From positions 124,001-188,000 of the forward strand of contig PAVO01000004.1 in assembly GCA_002713215.1 (NCBI GenBank): a stretch of DNA of 64,000 nucleotides, in the 5' to 3' direction. This document shows positions 3,259 to 60,001 of this stretch, piece by piece; position 1 is the stretch's first letter; every line of letters begins with the position of its first letter. The position numbers and the translations under genes were made by a program. A model generated the notes under the pieces. It was not told the DNA's origin. It was given only the letters and a program-made list of their open reading frames with translations, and searched no databases. The stretch is from Crocinitomicaceae bacterium. Lineage in GTDB: Bacteria > Bacteroidota > Bacteroidia > Flavobacteriales_G > Salibacteraceae.

Positions 3259-3708
3259 ATGGAGTTTTATTGGTTTAAGCGAGCGATGCTCCTTTCCTTC
3301 AGTGTTGAAGGCCGTGCTCGACGTAAGGAGTTGTTCACTTTTATTGGGTACGCCCTGGTTTTCAGTTTGATGTTTTCCGGTATCGGTTTTGGGCTGGTTG
3401 AACTGGGGATGGTAACACTAGGTTTTGCGATCCCTTGTTTATCACTGGTGTTTTTGCCGGCATTCTTGTCAGCACTCATTCGCCGCCTTCATGATGTAGG
3501 CCGAAATGGCGGATGGGTTAGTACCGTACTGTTCCCAGTTATATTGGTGTTGATTGTGACGGGGTTTCCAGATTTTGCAGCCCGTTCAGATAAAGCATTT
3601 ACCGTGCTTTTGCTCTGTAGTCTGATAGGGCCAATTTACGTATTGGTTTTCACCTTGACGGATTCAGGTGATGACAATATCTACGGGATAAACCCTAAAT
3701 CCGTATAA
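3259..3708 (+). CDS. DUF805 family inner-membrane protein
   Basis: The protein has the three hallmarks of DUF805: an N-terminal FSVEGRARRKE motif (compare the family's F-x-GRA-R-x-E), the central RRLHDVGRNG motif, and a C-terminal GDDNIYGINP element. Four hydrophobic segments are visible, at about residues 25-47, 51-72, 84-104 and 115-135, so it is an integral membrane protein. The family's biochemical role is not established. ATG 3259 follows a CAGGGG Shine-Dalgarno. Its 3' end overlaps the convergent HAD-like remnant at 3681 by 28 bp. A half palindrome (ATAAATGTTGTT, 3226-3237) lies between the likely -10 (TAGTAT) and the start. Confidence 0.85.
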   Translation: MEFYWFKRAMLLSFSVEGRARRKELFTFIGYALVFSLMFSGIGFGLVELGMVTLGFAIPCLSLVFLPAFLSALIRRLHDVGRNGGWVSTVLFPVILVLIVTGFPDFAARSDKAFTVLLLCSLIGPIYVLVFTLTDSGDDNIYGINPKSV

Positions 3709-3926
3709 AGGCTCAGTATGGTGGTCAGAATATCGTTTATTTCAATTTGGCTTTCTTCAAGTGTTTCGCATCTCCAAGCTGAACTGAGTACGATTTTAGC
3801 GCCAGTCTCGTCGGTGATTTCATTTAATCGCTCGATGAGGGATTTATACATGGAACCATCGCAAACAGCTAGGGTGCTCCCTGCGACGAAGCTGGGAGGG
3901 GAATAGCTGAGAGACAAGCTCTTGAC

Positions 3927-5220
3927 TTAATAGTGACACTGTATATTATCACAGTATGATTATACGCAAAGCCTACAAATTCAGATTAGATCCTACCGCC
4001 GATCAGGCGGCTAGGCTTGCTGTTCTTTGCGGTCACGCTCGATTTGTGTGGAACCAAGGGTTACGTCACTGCTTAGGACTACTTAACGCTGGCGAAAAGA
4101 TCCCAAGTGCTTTTGAGCTTAATAAACTGGTGACGCAATGGAAGAAAGAAGCAGATCTTTCTTGGCTCAAAGAGGCTTACACCGACAACCTACAGCAAAA
4201 ACTTAAAGATTTGCATGGCGCTTGGATGCGATGCTTTGACAAGTCGCTGGCAGCCGAAAAACCTAGATTTAAGAAGAAAGGCAAGGATCAAGATTCAATT
4301 CGTTTTGTTAACTTCAACAAATACTGTGAGTTAGATAGCAAACGAGTGAAGCTACCGAGCAAACTTGGTTGGTTGAAGTTCCGCAAGTCTCAAGAAGTGC
4401 AAGGCAACATCAAGAACTGTACTCTTAGCTTTAAGTCTGGTCATTGGTATATCTCGTTCCAAGTAGAGCAAGAGATTGACGAACCTAAGCATAGCTCTAG
4501 CTCTGCCGTTGGCATTGATATGGGCATTACAAAGTTTATAACACTGTCTGATGGCTCACATCTAAAGCCACTTAACGCATTTCGTAAGCATGAAAAACGT
4601 CTAGCTATCGCGCAGCGTAAGCTCTCCAAAAAGGTTAAATTCTCTGCCAATTGGCAGAAGCAGAAGACCAAAATTCAAAAGCTACACACTCTTATTGCGA
4701 ACTGCCGCAAGGACTACCTACACAAAGCCTCAAACAAAATCAGCAAGAACCACGCAATGATAGCGATTGAGGACTTACGTGTATCAAATATGTCTAAGTC
4801 AGCGAAAGGTAATGCAGAAGAACACGGCAAGAACGTGAAAGCTAAGTCAGGACTGAACAAATCAATACTCGATCAGGGTTGGTATGTGTTCAGAAGACAA
4901 CTTGAGTATAAGCAATTATGGAATGGCGGTTTAGTTGTCGCTGTTCCAGCTCAATACACAAGCCAAACTTGCCCTTGCTGTGGTCATGTGTCAAAAGACA
5001 ACCGCAAGACACAAGCGCACTTTGAGTGTGTTGAGTGCGGTTACACCAACAACGCAGATATTGTTGGTGCATTAAATATTTTAGAGCGGGGACACCGCTT
5101 GTTAGCCTGTGGAGAGTCGGCATTAGCCGCTTGATGAATCAGGAACTTGCGCCTAAAGCAATTTAGCGTGCACCCAAGTAATGGGAATCCCCCACCGAGT
5201 TAGGTGGGGGAGGATGTCAA
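3927..5220 (+). mobile_element. IS200/IS605-type element carrying only tnpB (IS1341-like)
   Basis: The element contains tnpB, no tnpA, and an imperfect left-end hairpin (GTGACACTG...TATCACAG, about 3933-3956). The right end has a strong hairpin, CCCCCACC / GGTGGGGG (5189-5210), and the terminal sequence GGATGTCAA typical of IS605 right ends. The left flank ends in TTGAC (3922-3926), comparable to the pentanucleotide target sites of this family, and no target duplication is expected. Boundaries are inferred from the split HAD gene and are good to about 10 bp. Without TnpA it can move only in trans. Confidence 0.75.
3956..5134 (+). CDS. tnpB: TnpB RNA-guided nuclease (IS605 OrfB)
   Basis: A 392-residue TnpB of normal length. 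It begins with the family motif IIRKAYKFRL. The split RuvC catalytic residues are all present: D188 (GIDMG), E272 (IEDL) and D368 (NADIVGA). A zinc finger with C339, C342, C358 and C361 lies between the last two. TnpB proteins cut DNA next to a transposon-adjacent motif using an RNA made from the element's right end, and they help keep the element in place after TnpA excision. With all catalytic residues intact it is probably active. ATG 3956 has no strong ribosome site. Confidence 0.93.
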   Translation: MIIRKAYKFRLDPTADQAARLAVLCGHARFVWNQGLRHCLGLLNAGEKIPSAFELNKLVTQWKKEADLSWLKEAYTDNLQQKLKDLHGAWMRCFDKSLAAEKPRFKKKGKDQDSIRFVNFNKYCELDSKRVKLPSKLGWLKFRKSQEVQGNIKNCTLSFKSGHWYISFQVEQEIDEPKHSSSSAVGIDMGITKFITLSDGSHLKPLNAFRKHEKRLAIAQRKLSKKVKFSANWQKQKTKIQKLHTLIANCRKDYLHKASNKISKNHAMIAIEDLRVSNMSKSAKGNAEEHGKNVKAKSGLNKSILDQGWYVFRRQLEYKQLWNGGLVVAVPAQYTSQTCPCCGHVSKDNRKTQAHFECVECGYTNNADIVGALNILERGHRLLACGESALAA

Positions 5221-5240
5221 CTATATCCAAGAATATAAGT
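5060..5240 (+). ncRNA. predicted right-end element RNA (reRNA / omega-RNA)
   Basis: In TnpB elements the guide RNA overlaps the 3' end of tnpB, runs through the right-end hairpin (here 5189-5210) and ends in a guide copied from the flanking DNA. The arrangement is all present: tnpB tail, structured right end to 5220, and then host sequence. The guide would be about 5221-5240, that is, the 5' end of the interrupted HAD gene, so the complex should recognise the empty donor site. The RNA start is not defined by sequence. Confidence 0.6.
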
Positions 5241-5309
5241 TTCATATCTTATTAAGGAGTTGAGGTGGTCGCGATGCCACCTCAAGTAACGATTTAGCAC
5301 CTGTTGATA

Positions 5310-7522: not shown

Positions 7523-8779
7523 CTAAGCAGCTAAATGAAAACGCAACTCTTCATCTTCCAGTTTTAGGAACTCAGGGTTGATTTGCAGACCGTTTTGTTC
7601 CTTGAAACGTTCCAGCGCAGAGCGCACATACTCCCAATTCATGTCGCATGTGATCCATTCCCGCCCAGCGAGCTCTGCTGCGTAACCGACAGTGGACCAC
7701 CCACCAAACGGGTCAACAACGCGTCCCCCTTCAGGACAAAAGTAGCGAATAAGCGTATCCGCCAACTTAACAGGAAATGTTGCACTATGTGGCGGAAGCC
7801 CCATCGCCTTAACTTGTCGGGCGAGCTTACGTTTGTTTCCACATGTCGTAGAGATGCGAAGTACATTACCCAGCACCGAGCCGCCGTTATCTTTAGCAAA
7901 ACTTCCCTTTTTAACGCGATGGGAACTGTCTGCTAAATGTCGTGTCCGAGATTCACCGCCTTGATTGATAAGTTTTTTCATGTTTTCAGAATAAGGCTGG
8001 AGTACACGTCGATTGTCCGCCAGGTTGAACTGTGGTTCCGTGTTAAACACTAAAATAGGTTCATACTTCGAGTTAAGGTGGGTACGCTGTTTGGATACAT
8101 ATTGTGTTGGCCCTGGCGCCGGGTTCATTTTGTCCCATATCATACGATCCATAAGGTGAAGTTCTAACTCGCGCGCAATGCGAATGGTTAGCTCTTCCAA
8201 ATAAAGGGAGCGTTCCCCAAATCGACGTTTAAGAACGGAATCGTTCGATAGATTCAGTACGAGGTTGGCACCTGGTACCATGCGTTTACGTAAAGGCTCA
8301 AGTACACTTATGATCATGTCGCTATACGCTTGTTCTTCATTGAATGTGCCGTATGAACGCTGAATACCAAGGTAGGGTGGGGACGTCAGCACAAGGTGCA
8401 CGTCGTCTGTGATCACTTTATCAAACACGTTGGCGCTATTACCCCATACTAATAGACCTAGCTCGGTGTTGGCTGCAACCAAATAGCGATCGGTATTGAT
8501 GCGAGCGAGATGATGCTTACCTTCTTTCGTCAATGCCCACTGTCCATGTCCGATACGCTCTATCATCCCCTTTGAACGAAGGCTTTGTTGTGCCCAGCGA
8601 GCAGAACGGGCGAAGGTGTTATATGGCTTTGGGTTCTTGGTGCCAATAACTTCCACACAGTCATCCAGCTTTACGCCTTTTTGTTTTGCCAGCGTTTTAT
8701 ATAACTGGTCATTCTTCATTGCGCCTGAGTTATCAGCATAGGCTTGCAAAATGGGCTCAAAGAGAGATTGTTGCTGCAT
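7523..8779 (-). CDS. beta-class DNA methyltransferase (TSPPY type) with N-terminal winged helix
   Basis: Residues about 1-100 look like a winged-helix DNA-binding domain. Then comes motif IV, T132-S133-P134-P135-Y136, followed by a target-recognition region. The C-terminal HSATFP and DPFGG (D356-G360) motifs bind S-adenosylmethionine. This motif order (IV before I) defines the beta class of N4-cytosine/N6-adenine DNA methyltransferases, and SPPY favours N4-cytosine. No endonuclease gene is adjacent, so it behaves as an orphan methyltransferase. It is transcribed divergently from the 8909 gene, and both promoters share one palindrome. Confidence 0.85.
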   Translation of the reverse strand: MQQQSLFEPILQAYADNSGAMKNDQLYKTLAKQKGVKLDDCVEVIGTKNPKPYNTFARSARWAQQSLRSKGMIERIGHGQWALTKEGKHHLARINTDRYLVAANTELGLLVWGNSANVFDKVITDDVHLVLTSPPYLGIQRSYGTFNEEQAYSDMIISVLEPLRKRMVPGANLVLNLSNDSVLKRRFGERSLYLEELTIRIARELELHLMDRMIWDKMNPAPGPTQYVSKQRTHLNSKYEPILVFNTEPQFNLADNRRVLQPYSENMKKLINQGGESRTRHLADSSHRVKKGSFAKDNGGSVLGNVLRISTTCGNKRKLARQVKAMGLPPHSATFPVKLADTLIRYFCPEGGRVVDPFGGWSTVGYAAELAGREWITCDMNWEYVRSALERFKEQNGLQINPEFLKLEDEELRFHLAA

Positions 8780-11068: not shown

Positions 11069-11401
11069 TTACTGTTTTTGGTGCTGTTTTAAACCCAAAC
11101 GTTTTTGTTTGAGTTCATCAGGGATATTGTTTTCATCAAGCAGCTCGCCTAGCGAGATGATAAAGACATCTTCGACGGGTGCGCCATGTTCAGGTTTTCC
11201 TTGACCTTTGCGAACGCCTTTCATGTTGAGCGTCATTGCGGGGACATGGTGCCCATAACCGTTGCGAAACTCTACGCGTTCATATTCTTTGCTTAATCGC
11301 ACTTCCCAGAACGCCTTTATTTCGCGGTACTCTTCGGTTTTTATGCCAAGGTAAATCATCTCAAACCACTGTCGTTTGAGAGTTAGTTGTAAAGTTCTCA
11401 T
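11069..11401 (-). CDS. ASCH (PUA-like) domain protein
   Basis: The N-terminal 35 residues carry the ASCH signature: an L-x-L-K-x-x-W-F-x-M-I-x-x-G-x-K-T-E-E-Y-R-E pattern. ASCH domains have the PUA-like fold and are thought to bind RNA or modified nucleotides; some act as small nucleases or amidohydrolases. The 110-residue length is normal for stand-alone members. Its start overlaps the stop of the upstream DUF4942 methyltransferase gene by 4 bp (ATGA), so the two are translationally coupled. A second PUA-like protein is at 45005. Confidence 0.8.
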   Translation of the reverse strand: MRTLQLTLKRQWFEMIYLGIKTEEYREIKAFWEVRLSKEYERVEFRNGYGHHVPAMTLNMKGVRKGQGKPEHGAPVEDVFIISLGELLDENNIPDELKQKRLGLKQHQKQ

Positions 11402-13065
11402 GCGTTTCCTTTGCTCAAGCGAAGCATGATGACAGAGACATTCGTACCAGTGGCAACAAACGCGTTATCAATAACTTCGCTCCATTCGTGCTGTAGTCCA
11501 TCTACAAGCGTTGTGTCTTTTAAGCTCGCCGGCAGTATGGCCACCAGCTTGCCATTGTGTTTAAGTAGCTCTGCGGCAGCCTGAACATGTTCCTTTGCTT
11601 GGCTGTCTGTGTAAGGTGGGTTCATTACGATACGGTCATAACTTCCTGCGCTTTTCGCCCATTCAAGGAAATCTGCGTTATCAACCTTAAAGCCTTTGGC
11701 TTGTAATATTGCGCTTTGTACTTTTGAAATTTCAACGCATTGCGTATCAGCAGGCATATACTGGGCGATATGGCCTTGACCAGCCGATGGTTCAAGACAA
11801 TCCATTCCCGGTTCAATGTCACACCAAGATACCGCGCGTTTCGCTTCGTTTTCCTGTGTGTGGTAGAACTGGTGAGAGCGCTGCTCTGGGATTGAGCCCA
11901 TTAGTACCAATGTTTCGCGTAACGTCTCAAAGTCATAGTCAAATCGATACCCTGGCATTCCTGCCTCAGATTTTTCAGGTGCTCCACCACATGCCACCAT
12001 GATTTCATGAACCTCACTGAAGTATGCCGGGGGGGTTTTCACATGAGAGTCCTTAAACTCTAAGCAAAATAGTGTCTTGTCATACAACCTACGATCATGC
12101 ATCCACTCTGGAGCGCGAGGGTCGTGCATGGTTGGGTTTTCCATGTTGGCAATAGCGCGCAATGCTTCGCCACTGATCAGATTGTGCTGAAGAGGGCGTA
12201 CTTTAGCGGTGTACTTAGGGCGCTTTCTCGCTTTAGGCGGGATGGCCATCGGATATAAAATGGCTAGGATCTGATTCAATCTCCACGCCATGTCTGGGTT
12301 GAGTTCTAGGTGTACGGTGCCAACTTTGTACACTTTAAGACGAACAGCGCCACCGTCGATATCGACCCACTTACCGTAGTAGCGAGAAGCGAAGTCAATC
12401 TGTTTCTCGGTGTCCTTAAGCCCAACTCCCTTTCGACCCATTAAAAAGCCGACTACAGAGCGCAAATCTGATACATACCCAATGACGTCCGGGGTTGGCT
12501 CAGATTCGCCAGTCCCAAACTTACTTGGCATGATCATGCGCTTACTAAAACCCATTGGCTGATTGGTTACGTGATCGCCAGATAATGACTGGAATATCCC
12601 ATCAACCGTCTCGGCCAAAAAGCGTTCACGAAGACTCAATAATTCACGAAGGGTGGGGATGACCGCTTCAATGGTGAAATCCGGTGTATCACAGCTTTCA
12701 ATTAGATCATTCCACTCTTTACGCTTAGCTTGTGGCATAAAGTCATAAGCATCGGTCAAATTAAGCGCCTTTTGCCAGAATTGCGCTGTCAGATATTTGA
12801 GTGCAGGTTCCTGCTGCATAAGGTTTACTGTGCCAAACAAGGTGTTCAAATTAGCTTTGGCTAATGTGGAAAGGGCTTGATGCTTATCTTTAAGGAACGC
12901 TACCGTGTCTTTGATGTCGGTTGATTGTTCATCGAATTCGCCAAAAAGAGAAGCTAACACATTGGTGTTTACAGGTTTAAAAAAAGGTGTTTCCGACTGA
13001 AGCTCTGCCAGTGCGGTCGATTGCGTACCTTGATTAATAGTGGCTAGTGCCAATGCTGTTGTCAT
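11398..13065 (-). CDS. DUF4942-type protein with C-terminal N6-adenine-like methyltransferase domain
   Basis: The N-terminal two thirds (about residues 1-400) match the general look of DUF4942 proteins found on plasmids and phages. The C-terminal part is a class I SAM methyltransferase, with motif I LEPSAGQGHIA (about residue 425) and motif IV MNPPY (about residue 480), the NPPY being typical of N6-adenine or N5-glutamine methyltransferases. With DNA as the likely substrate it would be a second orphan modification enzyme here. It is transcribed from a perfect recurrent-palindrome promoter at 13095-13136 and coupled to the ASCH gene. Confidence 0.8.
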   Translation of the reverse strand: MTTALALATINQGTQSTALAELQSETPFFKPVNTNVLASLFGEFDEQSTDIKDTVAFLKDKHQALSTLAKANLNTLFGTVNLMQQEPALKYLTAQFWQKALNLTDAYDFMPQAKRKEWNDLIESCDTPDFTIEAVIPTLRELLSLRERFLAETVDGIFQSLSGDHVTNQPMGFSKRMIMPSKFGTGESEPTPDVIGYVSDLRSVVGFLMGRKGVGLKDTEKQIDFASRYYGKWVDIDGGAVRLKVYKVGTVHLELNPDMAWRLNQILAILYPMAIPPKARKRPKYTAKVRPLQHNLISGEALRAIANMENPTMHDPRAPEWMHDRRLYDKTLFCLEFKDSHVKTPPAYFSEVHEIMVACGGAPEKSEAGMPGYRFDYDFETLRETLVLMGSIPEQRSHQFYHTQENEAKRAVSWCDIEPGMDCLEPSAGQGHIAQYMPADTQCVEISKVQSAILQAKGFKVDNADFLEWAKSAGSYDRIVMNPPYTDSQAKEHVQAAAELLKHNGKLVAILPASLKDTTLVDGLQHEWSEVIDNAFVATGTNVSVIMLRLSKGNA

Positions 13066-20680: not shown

Positions 20681-22108
20681 TTACGCGGCTTGTAAAAATG
20701 AGAGTGGTAGTGCGCTCTGCGGTTTCAATCGAGCGAAGTATTGACCTAAGAAGTCACCAATGCTTTGCCAAACCTTTTCTGATACGCCGTTGCCAAGCAA
20801 GCGATGTACAGCAGACTTGCTTCCCCTTTTAGTGACCAACTGATGGCGGCCTTCCGCAATGTCGCTCATGAGTGCAGCAAGTGCCGCAGGTATTTTTCGG
20901 ATCCTTGCGTGCTCATGCGGCTCAATAAATCGCTGCAACATAGGATCGGTTGGGTGAGCGACAAACGGCGCACCGGCTTTAGCCGCATAGGATGCAGTTA
21001 TAGTGGCAATCTTTGTCGCATCTGGGGCATGAACAGTGTTGGCATAGTTCACGCTCTTATCTGCCGTTTTACGGTGTAAATGGTCAATGTATCGGAATTT
21101 ATCTGAATCCGCAGGGATGTCATCTAAATAATCACCGAATAAAGGGCGCTCAGGCGACGCAGGGGCTTTAAGTTGTGAAATGTCGAACTCGGGTAGACCT
21201 TCACTAACCAAGACCACACAGGCGCGTTTACGGCCTTCAATTTCACCAAAGTCATGTGCGTTGAAGTTTGCCGTTGATAAACGGTAACCTTTCATTTCAC
21301 GACGGATAAAATCCAGTGTTGTACTGTTAGCGAAAGCCGGTGCATTTTCAATGATCACAACCGCAGGGTTTGCCTGCTTTATGCAGGCCAGAAAGTCCAC
21401 AAACAAGGTGCCTACAATTGGATGATTGGTGTCTCTAAGATCAGGTTCGCATAGTGTACTTTGTGCAACACAAGGATAACCCACTTCCACTACGTGCATT
21501 TGCGGGATCAGGTCCAATGGAATTTGACCTAACTCATCGACAATGGCGGTGGCATCGGACGTTGCCTTGTCCCAAATTGGGTTAGCTTCAAGGTTACATG
21601 ACATGGCCAGTGGGCTTAGATCATTGGCAAACGCAATTTCTGTTTCGATACCACGCGCTTCTAGGCCTTTTTTCAGGTGATAGGTCAACATGCCAAGACC
21701 AGAGAAAAAGCTGCCAGTGCGCAAAGGTTTTCCTGCACACAGTGCTTCAATGATACTTTTCTCACGCTCAAGACGACGTTGATCTTGGCGACGTAGCGTC
21801 AAGATTATTTTACCCTTGCGGAATGTCGCGGTGATTGCATCAACGGCGCCGAGAGCTTCACCAGTCGCCTTGTTCTTTAATTCAAACAATTCGCCACGAC
21901 CCGTATCCATGATCTTGTGAGTACCATTTTCATCGGCTGTGATCACGATACGGTGCTTGCTGTATTTAATGCTAACGCGAGTGTTCGCTGGCAAGCTACT
22001 GTTGCGTAATGCTTCACGGTTCTGGATGTAAACGCGAGAAGCACCTGATTTAAGCACTTTAACGGCGTAGCTATGTACTCGGGTGATAAAGTTACGTTTC
22101 ATATTCAT
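20681..22108 (-). CDS. C5-cytosine methyltransferase-like protein 1 with extra N-terminal domain
   Basis: The catalytic domain shows the C5-MTase order: motif I TGSFFSGLG (residues 131-139), motif IV GYPCVAQS (C213), motif VI ENA (254-256), motif VIII EGRKR (291-295), and motif X LLGNGVS near the C-terminus. Motif IV departs from the usual PCQ-x-FS and motif VI is ENA, not ENV, yet the nucleophilic Cys is kept. About 125 residues precede motif I and form a beta-rich domain that is shared with the protein at 53832, so the two are paralogues. No endonuclease is nearby. The expected product is 5-methylcytosine or another C5 modification; the odd motifs leave the exact chemistry open. Confidence 0.75.
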   Translation of the reverse strand: MNMKRNFITRVHSYAVKVLKSGASRVYIQNREALRNSSLPANTRVSIKYSKHRIVITADENGTHKIMDTGRGELFELKNKATGEALGAVDAITATFRKGKIILTLRRQDQRRLEREKSIIEALCAGKPLRTGSFFSGLGMLTYHLKKGLEARGIETEIAFANDLSPLAMSCNLEANPIWDKATSDATAIVDELGQIPLDLIPQMHVVEVGYPCVAQSTLCEPDLRDTNHPIVGTLFVDFLACIKQANPAVVIIENAPAFANSTTLDFIRREMKGYRLSTANFNAHDFGEIEGRKRACVVLVSEGLPEFDISQLKAPASPERPLFGDYLDDIPADSDKFRYIDHLHRKTADKSVNYANTVHAPDATKIATITASYAAKAGAPFVAHPTDPMLQRFIEPHEHARIRKIPAALAALMSDIAEGRHQLVTKRGSKSAVHRLLGNGVSEKVWQSIGDFLGQYFARLKPQSALPLSFLQAA

Positions 22109-53831: not shown

Positions 53832-55280
53832 CTATACTGCGATAGCCAATTGAACACTTTGGAACGATTTACGCTTCCGTTTTTCTTGATACCAAAGTTT
53901 TAATGATGCACCGATACAGAAGAACACCGCCTCGCTTACTCCGCCAACAATCCCGTTACCAAGCATTTGGCCTTGATGTTTCTTGGCAGCAACCCCGTCG
54001 ACTAAATCTTCAGGCATCTGTTTGATGCGAGCAATTTCCAAATCTGTGAAAAATCGAAAGCGGGTAGGATCTTCAGGGTGAGTTGGGTAAGGATCTTCCG
54101 CTCTACCTCTGTAGTGTCCGGCAGTGATTGTTTTTACTTTGGTATCTTCGTTGTGCGCCAAATTGTTGCGACGGCCCTTACGCTCAAACGCTGTTTTGAG
54201 ACCATTGCCGATGCTGTAGTCTTTGTCTGTGAAGCGAGATTCATCTTCACGGATATCGCCAACAGTTAATTCGCACGCTTTCTTAAGCGCTGTAAGGCCA
54301 GCAAAGCTCATAGGGATACCTTTGGTGACAAATATCGCGAAAAGTCTCTTACGGCTCTCTAGGGCTCCATATTCATGTGAATCAATGCCTTTGTAGGTCT
54401 CAATATCTTGAGACTCGGGATCTGCTAAATAGAAGTCATAACCTTGAGCCTTGAAAATGCGCGAGATAATGTCAAATCCAATGGTCTGAGCATATGGCAC
54501 AACATTTTCGATAACTATTACAGGTACGCTCCAGCGATTTCCAGCCATTACATTCAAGAACGAGGCGAAAAGATGTCCGTAATCTGGGCAGCGCTCAGGT
54601 TCGTCACGATGAGCAATGTTAAGCTTGCTACTGTTTTTGCATACGATGCCCGCGCTTAGAATGTCTACACCATTAAGCTCTTCGCCAGTTAAGTGGTGCA
54701 TGTCCATAGCGTAAGTTTTAGTGACGCCTTTGACGTATGCTGGGTTATTTGCGACCAGAGTATTAATGGAAAGGGGGTCAATGTCGTTTGTGAACACCAG
54801 CTTTGACGCAATACCCGCTTTGTTTAGCCCTGATTCCGCGCCGATGTCCCCCATGCCTACGCCAGAGAACAGCGACCCAGTTCTAAATGCTTCGCCGCTA
54901 CGAAAACGGGATAGTAGCTGCTTAGCTCTGTCACGAGCTCTGCGCTCAATAGGCAAGACGCAGATAGTTAGCTTACCGGGAGAATAAATAGCCAACATCA
55001 TTTCCTGATCTTCAGCACTCTCAGCAACCTTTTGATTTTTAAGATCGAGGCGGCTACCAATGACATTGCCTTTACGGTAACGATATACTTTTTCAGAAAT
55101 AACACGATCGCCGTTATCATCAACGAGCACTGTGATTTGATTTGGTTCATAATCAACGCTGAAGCGCTGTCCTGGCACTAGGCCTATCTCCGCCAGTTTG
55201 CTGACGTTTTCAATATTGATGCGAGCAGCGGAGCCCAATCGCTCATTACGCTGCACAGCAACGGATTCTTGGTGTTGCAT
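53832..55280 (-). CDS. C5-cytosine methyltransferase-like protein 2 with extra N-terminal domain
   Basis: Motif I TGSLFSGVG (134-142), motif IV AGIVCKNSS with C214, motif VI ENV (258-260), motif VIII ESRKR (298-302) and a C-terminal GQMLGNGI (motif X) follow the C5-MTase plan. Motif IV lacks the Pro normally before the nucleophilic Cys (VC where PC is usual). The first 130 residues align with the N-terminal domain of the 20681 protein (RINIENVSKL versus RVYIQNREAL; both continue with a VLVDDNG- or VITADENG-type strand). Both are the same unusual family. It is divergent from the hns-like gene with which it shares a promoter region. No partner endonuclease is seen. Confidence 0.7.
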   Translation of the reverse strand: MQHQESVAVQRNERLGSAARINIENVSKLAEIGLVPGQRFSVDYEPNQITVLVDDNGDRVISEKVYRYRKGNVIGSRLDLKNQKVAESAEDQEMMLAIYSPGKLTICVLPIERRARDRAKQLLSRFRSGEAFRTGSLFSGVGMGDIGAESGLNKAGIASKLVFTNDIDPLSINTLVANNPAYVKGVTKTYAMDMHHLTGEELNGVDILSAGIVCKNSSKLNIAHRDEPERCPDYGHLFASFLNVMAGNRWSVPVIVIENVVPYAQTIGFDIISRIFKAQGYDFYLADPESQDIETYKGIDSHEYGALESRKRLFAIFVTKGIPMSFAGLTALKKACELTVGDIREDESRFTDKDYSIGNGLKTAFERKGRRNNLAHNEDTKVKTITAGHYRGRAEDPYPTHPEDPTRFRFFTDLEIARIKQMPEDLVDGVAAKKHQGQMLGNGIVGGVSEAVFFCIGASLKLWYQEKRKRKSFQSVQLAIAV

Positions 55281-57661: not shown

Positions 57662-60001
57662 CTAAATCTTACAAGCTCCACCTTCACAGCCTTCGTCCTC
57701 TTTTTCGACGACGACGTCACGAGATTCTGCATTTGCAGCTTGACTAGCTATGTCGTCAACTGAACTGTTGGCGTGATCACGTGTGTTGTGGTAGTAAAGC
57801 GTCTTAACACCATGTACGTATGCAAATAACATATCGCGGAACAGCTGCTTCATAGGCACTTTGCCATTCGGGAACTTCATCGGGTCGTAGTCAGTGTTGG
57901 CACTGATTGATTGGTCGACGAATTTCTGCATGATTGCAACCAATGATAGGTAACCAGTGTTGTCTGGAATATCCCATAGCAACTCATAGTTATCTTTCAA
58001 GCGGTGGTATTCAGGAACAACCTGTTTCAACACGCCGTCTTTACTTGCCTTAACACTGATGAATCCGCGAGGCGGCTCAATACCGTTTGTTGCGTTAGAG
58101 ATCTGAGAGCTGGTCTCTGATGGCATTAATGCAGTCAACGTAGAGTTACGTAGGCCATGCTCTTTGATTTCAGCGCGTAACGATTCCCAGTCAAGCAACA
58201 ATGGAGTGTTACATAGGTCGTCTACCTTCTTCGCATACGTGTCGATTGGCAATAAGCCTTGAGCGTATGTTGTGTCACCGAATGCAGAACATGCACCTTG
58301 CTCTTTTGCAAGCTGGTTTGATGCTTTTAGCAAGTAGAACTGGATAGCTTCAAACGTCTGGTGAGTCAGTTCGTTTGCTGAGCCGTCAGAATACTTAAGT
58401 CCGTTTTTCGCTAAGTAGTAAGCGTAGTTAATTACACCAGCACCAATTGGACGGCGTGATAACGTAGACTTTTTAGCAGCAGGAACAGGGTAGTCTTGAT
58501 AGCTTAATAGGAAATCCAGACCACGAACTAACAGGTCAGCTAGCTCTTCCAGTTCATCCAAGCTTTCGATTGCGCCTAAGTTGAATGCAGACAGAGTGCA
58601 TAGGCTGATTTCACCGTTCTCATCGTGAGAGTGTTCTAAAGGTTTAGTAGGGAGGGTGATTTCCATACATAGGTTAGACTGGCGAATTGGCGCTACTTCA
58701 GGGTTGAATGCGCTGTGTGTGTTACAGTGGTCAACGTTCTGCAAGTAAATACGGCCAGTACCTGAACGTTCTTGCATGAAAGTGCCAAATAAGTCTACAG
58801 CCTTAACTGTGCGCTTACGAATAGACTCGTCGGCTTCGTACTTAACGTATAGCTTTTCGAATTTATCTTGGTCCGCAAAAAACGCATCGTACAAACCTGG
58901 AACATCATTCGGGCTGAATAGAGTGATATTTCCGCTTTTTTGAAGGCGCTGGTACATCAAACGGTTGAACTGCACGCCATAGTCTAAGTGGCGAACACGG
59001 TTTTCATCTACGCCACGGTTATTCTTGAGAACCAGTAGTTCAGGTGATTCAATGTGCCAGATCGGGTAAAACAACGTCGCAGCACCACCGCGAATACCGC
59101 CTTGCGAGCAGCTCTTAACCGCAGTTTGGAAGTGTTTAAAGAACGGGATGCATCCAGTATGGAACGCTTCACCATTACGGATAGGGCTACCAAGTCCGCG
59201 AATTACCCCTGCGTTAATGCCGATACCGGCACGTTGAGATACGTATTTAACAATTGATGACGATGACGCATTGATTGAATCCAAGCTATCATCGGTGTCA
59301 ATAACAACACACGAGCTGAACTGGCGGGTAGGGGTACGAACACCACCCATGATTGGCGTTGGGAATGAAATTTTCTTCTTCGATGTGGCGTCATACATGC
59401 GACGGATGTAATCCATTCGAATATCTTTCGGGTAGCCACTGAACATGGTTGCTGCAATCAGGACATATAGAACCTGAGGTGTTTCGAAGATGGTGCCTTT
59501 AACACGGTCCTGAACCAGATATTTACCTTCAAACTGCTTCATTGCAGCATATTGGTAGGTTAAGTCACGATCTTGTTCAACGAAACTATCCATTAAATCG
59601 AATTCTGCTTCTGTGAAATCAGTCAGGAATGCTTTGTCGTATTTACCAGCTTCGACCATTTTGACAACGTGGTCATAAAGGCGAGGGACTTCGTAATCAC
59701 CGTATGCTTTCTTACGAATGTGATAAAGAGACAAGATCCCGGCATAGATGTCGTAATCCGGCGTTTCCGGAGAAATAAGATCAGCCGCTGACTTAATTAA
59801 CGTTTCATGGATGGCTTCAGTTGTCATCCCATTTACGAACTGTAACTGAGCGCTGAGCTCGACTTGAGAAACTGAAATGTCCAGAGGACGGTCATAGACC
59901 TTTTCTGCGGCTTCCTTGGCCCACATTAACACCTTATGGATTTTCTCGATTTGCAAAGGCTCTTGTACGCCCTTGCGCTTAGTGATCATAGTTTGGCTCA
60001 T
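57662..60001 (-). CDS. nrdA: class Ia ribonucleotide reductase, alpha subunit (NrdA)
   Basis: 779 residues, full length. An N-terminal ATP-cone (TKRKGVQEPLQIEKIHKVL) is followed by the catalytic alpha/beta barrel with Cys in SSCVV, SNLCMEI (thiyl radical Cys) and SLCTLSAF. The radical-transfer Tyr pair is in TLYYHNT, and the C-terminal CEGGACKI provides the redox-active Cys pair. It reduces ribonucleoside diphosphates to make dNTPs. The sequence is E. coli/Vibrio NrdA-like but diverged, with an extra YDRPLD insertion near residue 40. The promoter carries an NrdR-box pair. Likely purpose: dNTP supply for the replicon. Confidence 0.97.
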   Translation of the reverse strand: MSQTMITKRKGVQEPLQIEKIHKVLMWAKEAAEKVYDRPLDISVSQVELSAQLQFVNGMTTEAIHETLIKSAADLISPETPDYDIYAGILSLYHIRKKAYGDYEVPRLYDHVVKMVEAGKYDKAFLTDFTEAEFDLMDSFVEQDRDLTYQYAAMKQFEGKYLVQDRVKGTIFETPQVLYVLIAATMFSGYPKDIRMDYIRRMYDATSKKKISFPTPIMGGVRTPTRQFSSCVVIDTDDSLDSINASSSSIVKYVSQRAGIGINAGVIRGLGSPIRNGEAFHTGCIPFFKHFQTAVKSCSQGGIRGGAATLFYPIWHIESPELLVLKNNRGVDENRVRHLDYGVQFNRLMYQRLQKSGNITLFSPNDVPGLYDAFFADQDKFEKLYVKYEADESIRKRTVKAVDLFGTFMQERSGTGRIYLQNVDHCNTHSAFNPEVAPIRQSNLCMEITLPTKPLEHSHDENGEISLCTLSAFNLGAIESLDELEELADLLVRGLDFLLSYQDYPVPAAKKSTLSRRPIGAGVINYAYYLAKNGLKYSDGSANELTHQTFEAIQFYLLKASNQLAKEQGACSAFGDTTYAQGLLPIDTYAKKVDDLCNTPLLLDWESLRAEIKEHGLRNSTLTALMPSETSSQISNATNGIEPPRGFISVKASKDGVLKQVVPEYHRLKDNYELLWDIPDNTGYLSLVAIMQKFVDQSISANTDYDPMKFPNGKVPMKQLFRDMLFAYVHGVKTLYYHNTRDHANSSVDDIASQAANAESRDVVVEKEDEGCEGGACKI

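What the first reader, a model, noticed from the sequence alone, without database searches (positions are those of the whole stretch)
3681..5245. TnpB-only element inserted in a HAD gene, with a guide matching the broken gene
MKLIFLDI (5222-5245) and the IVLSSAWR fragment (3681-3926) flank the element in the same frame family. TnpB keeps D188, E272, D368 and its zinc finger. The reRNA guide (about 5221-5240) would match the empty donor gene, so TnpB would cut any uninterrupted copy next to a TTGAC-like adjacent motif. This gives a direct, testable prediction of target and motif.
Basis: partly seen in the sequence, partly recalled or inferred. Interest (0 to 1): 0.6.

Follow-up and report, generated by a model that had tools for sequence, protein, structure and literature searches.

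The report
TnpB-only insertion element in HAD remnant

Summary
The element is real but runs from 3860 to 5220 (1361 bp), not from about 3926. Ten related copies share one junction rule: CCAT (CCAC in two Vibrio copies), left-end hairpin, tnpB, right end TGTCAA, then flank. Joining flanks by that rule restores reading frames at other insertions.

In the window the join gives MKLIFLDIDGSMYKSLIERLNEITDETGAKIVLSSAWR..., a phage-type HAD_SAK_2 remnant. The flanks did belong to one gene, but it lacks a segment after DxDG and its C-terminal half. TnpB keeps D188, E272, D368 and its zinc finger, has mostly synonymous changes, and has a covarying right-end RNA. tnpA is missing, as in a 1361-bp Neiella copy. 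No identical empty site was found.

By-product: in this copy, a V. casei copy and the Neiella copy, the target gene lacks an in-frame stretch that appears to run from one CCAT-compatible site to another beside the left end. That hints at TnpA-made deletions, but rests on three reconstructed cases.

The parts
3856..3859 (+). CCAT, target/transposon-adjacent motif kept at the left junction
   Evidence: CCAT or CCAC directly left of the left end in ten related copies, and CCAT in an eleventh
3860..3955 (+). left end of the IS: hairpin 3866-3909, then the short remnant left by loss of tnpA
   Evidence: Alignment with Vibrio and Neiella left ends; two outer stem pairs kept by paired changes; DNA fold
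3922..3926 (+).
3956..5134 (+). tnpB, 392 aa, RuvC D188/E272/D368 and CPCC/CVEC zinc finger
   Evidence: Pfam OrfB_IS605 and Cas12f1-like_TNB; ISDra2 TnpB 8bf8/8h1j E about 1e-46; residues
5081..5220 (+). right end / reRNA scaffold (5' limit approximate), overlapping the 3' end of tnpB; terminal hairpin 5188-5211; ends TGTCAA
   Evidence: RNA fold z -4.5; 15 of 43 predicted pairs with two-sided changes over nine copies
5221..5240 (+). guide segment CTATATCCAAGAATATAAGT (right flank read into the reRNA)
   Evidence: first base after TGTCAA in the junction comparison; about 16-nt flank-derived guide known for ISDra2 (PMC8612924)
5221..5245 (-). start of the interrupted HAD gene, MKLIFLDI plus first base of the next codon
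   Evidence: homologues start with x-K/R-x-IFLDIDG
3681..3859 (-). downstream remnant of the HAD gene (GSMYKSLIERLNEITDETGAKIVLSSAWR...LGFIP stop); C-terminal half absent
   Evidence: PF18143 HAD_SAK_2 E 8.7e-7 for the joined protein; alignment; no C-terminal half in any minus frame downstream

Best explanation
A TnpB-only derivative of an IS200/IS605-type insertion sequence (left end, tnpB, right end; 3860-5220) sits in a phage-type HAD gene on a 197-kb contig. Shown by sequence: the ends, the CCAY adjacent motif, absence of tnpA, an intact-looking nuclease and a conserved right-end RNA. Inferred from established TnpB biology: the transcript's right end plus about 16-20 nt of flank guides TnpB to cut any copy of the replicon with CCAT next to CTATATCCAAGAATATAAG, so element-free copies are removed or refilled by recombination. 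Inferred and less sure: the element first inserted after the CCAT that lies opposite the GAT-GGN codons of the HAD DxDG motif, and its left end was later joined to a second CCAT further into the gene, deleting the DNA between. Without a close TnpA in the genome this copy is probably immobile and persists through TnpB.
For: Same junction rule in ten copies and an eleventh. Frames restored by CCAT or CCAC plus RE TGTCAA in the L013, L014, L118 and L009 genes. DxDG formed by the joined window flanks. RuvC residues and zinc finger intact. 123 synonymous against 45 non-synonymous codon differences to the Neiella copy. RNA fold and covariation. Neiella copy of identical length without tnpA. TnpA fragments in the genome are about 51% identical to the V. 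casei TnpA and lie next to a different left end. TnpB gives IS-bearing plasmids an advantage over IS-free copies in experiments (PMC11870625).
Against: No empty site identical in DNA was found. The HAD gene is incomplete, so its pre-insertion sequence is reconstructed from distant homologues. Cleavage activity, transcription and replicon copy number are untested. The CCAT motif is inferred from insertion sites, not from a cleavage assay.
Confidence: 0.85

Rival explanations
1. One reading: the element's left end is near 3926 with TTGAC as adjacent motif, and the flanks are one gene interrupted without loss.
For: TTGAC is present at 3922-3926 and the minus-strand ORF 3681-3917 is open over the hairpin.
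Against: That ORF segment is the left-end hairpin shared with six other copies. All copies have CCAY at the left end. Joining at TTGAC would give MKLIFLDIVKSLSLSY..., without the DxDG motif that the homologues have.
Confidence: 0.03
2. The HAD gene had already lost its internal segment and C-terminus before insertion; the element then inserted cleanly at the single CCAT of the decayed gene.
For: The C-terminal half is missing too, and the joined frame is open and contains DxDG.
Against: Two other copies show the same kind of gap beside the left end with CCAT at the junction (V. casei galR, Neiella dam), which points to the element as the cause.
Confidence: 0.4
3. The element is a dead relic: TnpB no longer acts, and the guide match is only the trivial copy of its own flank.
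For: No tnpA in the element; no second copy in the genome.
Against: Full-length ORF, catalytic residues and RNA structure kept, mostly synonymous changes.
Confidence: 0.2
4. The guide has been kept because it targets phage HAD genes, giving the replicon a weak anti-phage activity.
For: A viral contig of the same length as Shewanella phage 1/4 carries CCAT followed by 18 contiguous guide bases at the start of its HAD gene. KVP40-like Vibrio phages and Lak phages match 25 of 28 bases over motif plus guide, although KVP40 has CCGT.
Against: The match follows from conservation of the start of this protein family; one guide in one genome; no sign of selection on it.
Confidence: 0.04

Closest known systems
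IS200/IS605-family elements of Vibrio plasmids (NZ_AP018682, NZ_AP018688, NZ_AP018683, NZ_CP046807, NZ_CP014093)
   Same: Left-end hairpin, right end, CCAY junction; TnpB 89-92% identical in the four measured
   Different: They carry a divergent tnpA between left end and tnpB; the window copy does not
TnpB-only copy in Neiella litorisoli (NZ_JACXAF010000009.1, L011)
   Same: Same length (1361 bp), same tnpA-less layout, 83% DNA identity, CCAT junction
   Different: Inserted in a DNA adenine methylase gene, so it has a different guide
ISDra2 TnpB (PDB 8bf8, 8h1j)
   Same: Domain layout, RuvC residues, zinc finger, RNA made of right end plus flank (PMC8612924)
   Different: Adjacent motif TTGAT there, CCAY here; ISDra2 has tnpA
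TnpB gene drive of IS elements in plasmids (PMC11870625)
   Same: The proposed action on element-free replicon copies
   Different: That study used elements with an active TnpA; here it is missing, and no activity was measured

Membership tests
TnpB RNA-guided nucleases of IS200/IS605 elements | RuvC D-E-D and zinc finger | tested here: met
   D188, E272, D368; CPCC/CVEC; alignment to 8bf8 and 8h1j
TnpB RNA-guided nucleases of IS200/IS605 elements | structured right-end RNA overlapping the tnpB 3' end, followed by flank as guide | tested here: met
   fold z -4.5, covariation, fixed TGTCAA end in nine aligned copies; transcription itself not tested
TnpB RNA-guided nucleases of IS200/IS605 elements | constant adjacent motif at the left end of independent insertions | tested here: met
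   CCAT/CCAC in ten copies plus one more
TnpB RNA-guided nucleases of IS200/IS605 elements | RNA-guided DNA cleavage | not testable with these tools
   needs an interference or in vitro assay
autonomous IS605-type element | Y1 transposase TnpA in the element | tested here: not met
   only 96 bp lie between the left boundary and tnpB
TldR (nuclease-dead TnpB-like repressors) | loss of RuvC catalytic residues | tested here: not met
   all three residues present
HAD_SAK_2 (PF18143) for the interrupted gene | FLDIDG motif and LNxIxxxTGAxIVxSSxWR segment | tested here: met
   joined protein E 8.7e-7, alignment with about 20 phage homologues
HAD_SAK_2 (PF18143) for the interrupted gene | full-length domain including the C-terminal RGxEI...DDD part | tested here: not met
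   joined gene ends after 67 aa; no remainder downstream

The most novel reading that the evidence does not exclude
Elements of this group make left-end-adjacent deletions that run exactly from one CCAY motif to another: TnpA joins the left end to a second adjacent motif nearby, so an insertion also removes DNA of its target while keeping a correct-looking motif and a guide that still matches the intact gene. Seen as in-frame gaps in the window HAD gene, V. casei galR (15 codons) and Neiella dam (about 120 codons).
Probability: 0.3. Interest if true: 0.5.

Novelty: new member of a known kind. Interest (0 to 1): 0.35.

Why it matters
It corrects a testable prediction: the motif is CCAT, so cleavage assays built on TTGAC would fail for the wrong reason. 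It points to a small TnpB with a CCAY motif, which could widen the set of targetable sites if active; a full-text search of open papers for TnpB, TAM and CCAT gave only three papers with unrelated titles (not read). The apparent CCAT-to-CCAT deletions, if confirmed, would show a way in which IS605-type elements damage their targets beyond simple insertion, and would mislead anyone inferring an empty site from one copy.

Tried and rejected
TTGAC as motif: rejected by the copy comparison. CCATC as a five-base motif: rejected because an added C breaks the frames that CCAT restores in L006, L012 and L013 and the minus-strand frame of L014. Search for an empty site in plasmids, phages, viral contigs, related genomes and the same genome: no identical uninterrupted gene. 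More close copies in E. coli genomes, viral contigs and 395 genomes of the class: none; 394 genomes of the order of Neiella gave one more. Of the 53 viral stretches with CCAT plus 13 guide bases, all but two (L054, L062) are not HAD genes but other proteins or frames that share the DNA. Whether the second CCAT existed in the native dam gene of Neiella could not be settled: homologues have Pro-Phe there but CCG, CCC or CCT codons. L007, L008, L010 and L012 could not be judged clean or deleted.

Full report
What is there. The window carries a 392-aa TnpB ORF at 3956-5134. It matches OrfB_IS605, Cas12f1-like_TNB and the HTH domain of Pfam and ISDra2 TnpB in the PDB (8bf8, 8h1j; E about 1e-46). 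D188, E272 and D368 align with the RuvC residues of ISDra2, and the zinc finger is complete. Only D191 of ISDra2 was checked in a paper (PMC8612924); the other two positions are from my own knowledge.

The ends. Five Vibrio plasmid copies have a left-end hairpin, a divergent tnpA, tnpB and a right end. Two outer stem pairs are kept by paired changes. Left of the hairpin all copies have CCAT or CCAC, and right of the right end all have TGTCAA and then unrelated flank. So the element is 3860-5220, the adjacent motif is CCAT at 3856-3859, and the guide starts at 5221. TTGAC (3922-3926) is inside.

Test of that rule. Joining flanks at CCAT (or CCAC) and TGTCAA restores continuous genes at other insertions: a beta-CASP nuclease in Marinobacter (L013), a DGQHR-domain gene in Marinobacterium (L014), a universal-stress gene in another genome (L118), and a small Vibrio gene (L009, read by eye). 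Adding a fifth base (CCATC) breaks the frame in L006, L012 and L013. That the restored genes are whole families without a gap is from my knowledge of the families for L013, L014, L118 and L009; I did not search each one.

The interrupted gene. The joined window flanks give a 67-aa protein with FLDIDG and LNEITDETGAKIVLSSAWR. Pfam calls it HAD_SAK_2 (E 8.7e-7), and its relatives are phage proteins. Compared with about 20 of them, the join lacks the VLN... segment after DxDG (16 residues from DG to TGA, against 24-45 in 18 homologues) and the C-terminal half. The nearest homologue, L020, aligns GWMNKSLVENLNKITDETGAKIVISSAWRC with the left flank, and its TATGG gives CCAT at the same place. So the flanks belonged to one gene, but what is left is a remnant.

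A possible pattern. In V. casei (L006) the joined galR spans 141 residues where the listed best homologues span 156. The gap lies between an A-M-V site (GCG ATG GTA in L092) and a T-M-G site (ACA ATG GGA in L094), both reading CCAT on the other strand; the other two homologues have Ile at the second site. In Neiella (L011) the joined dam lacks about 120 codons; its right flank follows a conserved Pro-Phe, which allows CCAT by codon choice, although none of six homologues uses it. In the window the right flank follows the DxDG codons, which read CCAT in 8 of 19 homologues. Each gap is in frame and ends at the left end of the element. This suggests that the left end was rejoined to a second CCAT. 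Three cases reconstructed from homologues are not proof; slippage between short repeats, or loss before insertion, are alternatives. Searches of open papers for such deletions by IS605-type elements showed nothing explicit in titles or abstracts; I did not read those papers.

RNA and selection. The right end folds well (z -4.5) and shows two-sided changes at 15 of 43 predicted pairs over nine copies. Between window and Neiella tnpB, 123 differing codons are synonymous and 45 not, so the nuclease has been under selection at least until recently.

Mobility. No tnpA lies in the element. In the genome, Y1 transposase hits are weak; two are contig-end fragments about 51% identical to the V. casei TnpA and lie next to a different left end. 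The Neiella copy shows that the tnpA-less form has moved, or that the same loss happened twice; the shared sequence just before tnpB favours one lineage.

Target. No exact copy of CCAT plus the guide exists elsewhere in the genome; outside the element's own right junction the best has two mismatches in 18. Of viral contigs, one of the same length as Shewanella phage 1/4 carries CCAT plus 18 contiguous guide bases. A role against phages is not supported beyond this coincidence of a conserved protein start.

Verdict. A new member of a known kind, with corrected ends and motif, and one side observation worth a survey.

Noticed in passing
L006:2456-4265 (galR), L011:2902-4266 (dam), window 3856-5245: In three copies the interrupted gene lacks an in-frame stretch beside the left end, apparently from one CCAT-compatible site to another.
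   Followed up: partly
L054 (IMGVR_UViG_2706795801_000001, same length as Shewanella phage 1/4): A HAD gene start carries CCAT plus 18 contiguous bases of the window guide (19 of 20).
   Followed up: partly
L002 (G000:C4:86915-89951), outside the window: A second TnpB-type element on the same contig, with a right end of the same TGTCAA type next to a dihydrofolate-reductase-like gene; no tnpA seen in the stretch read.
   Followed up: no
L095 and L097 (G000:C30, G000:C7): Two contigs end inside an IS200-type tnpA next to a different left end (TTTTATCAATTAAACC...), so the genome holds another, repeated IS200-type element.
   Followed up: partly
L011:2821-4179: In Neiella the start of dam, the left end and tnpB form one open frame of 452 codons, so tnpB could be translated as a fusion with the broken gene.
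   Followed up: no
window 7523-8779, 11398-13065, 20681-22108, 53832-55280, 57662-60001: The contig carries several DNA methylases (N6_N4 with an Mrr_N domain, DUF4942-MTS, two C5 methylases) and a ribonucleotide reductase large chain.
   Followed up: no
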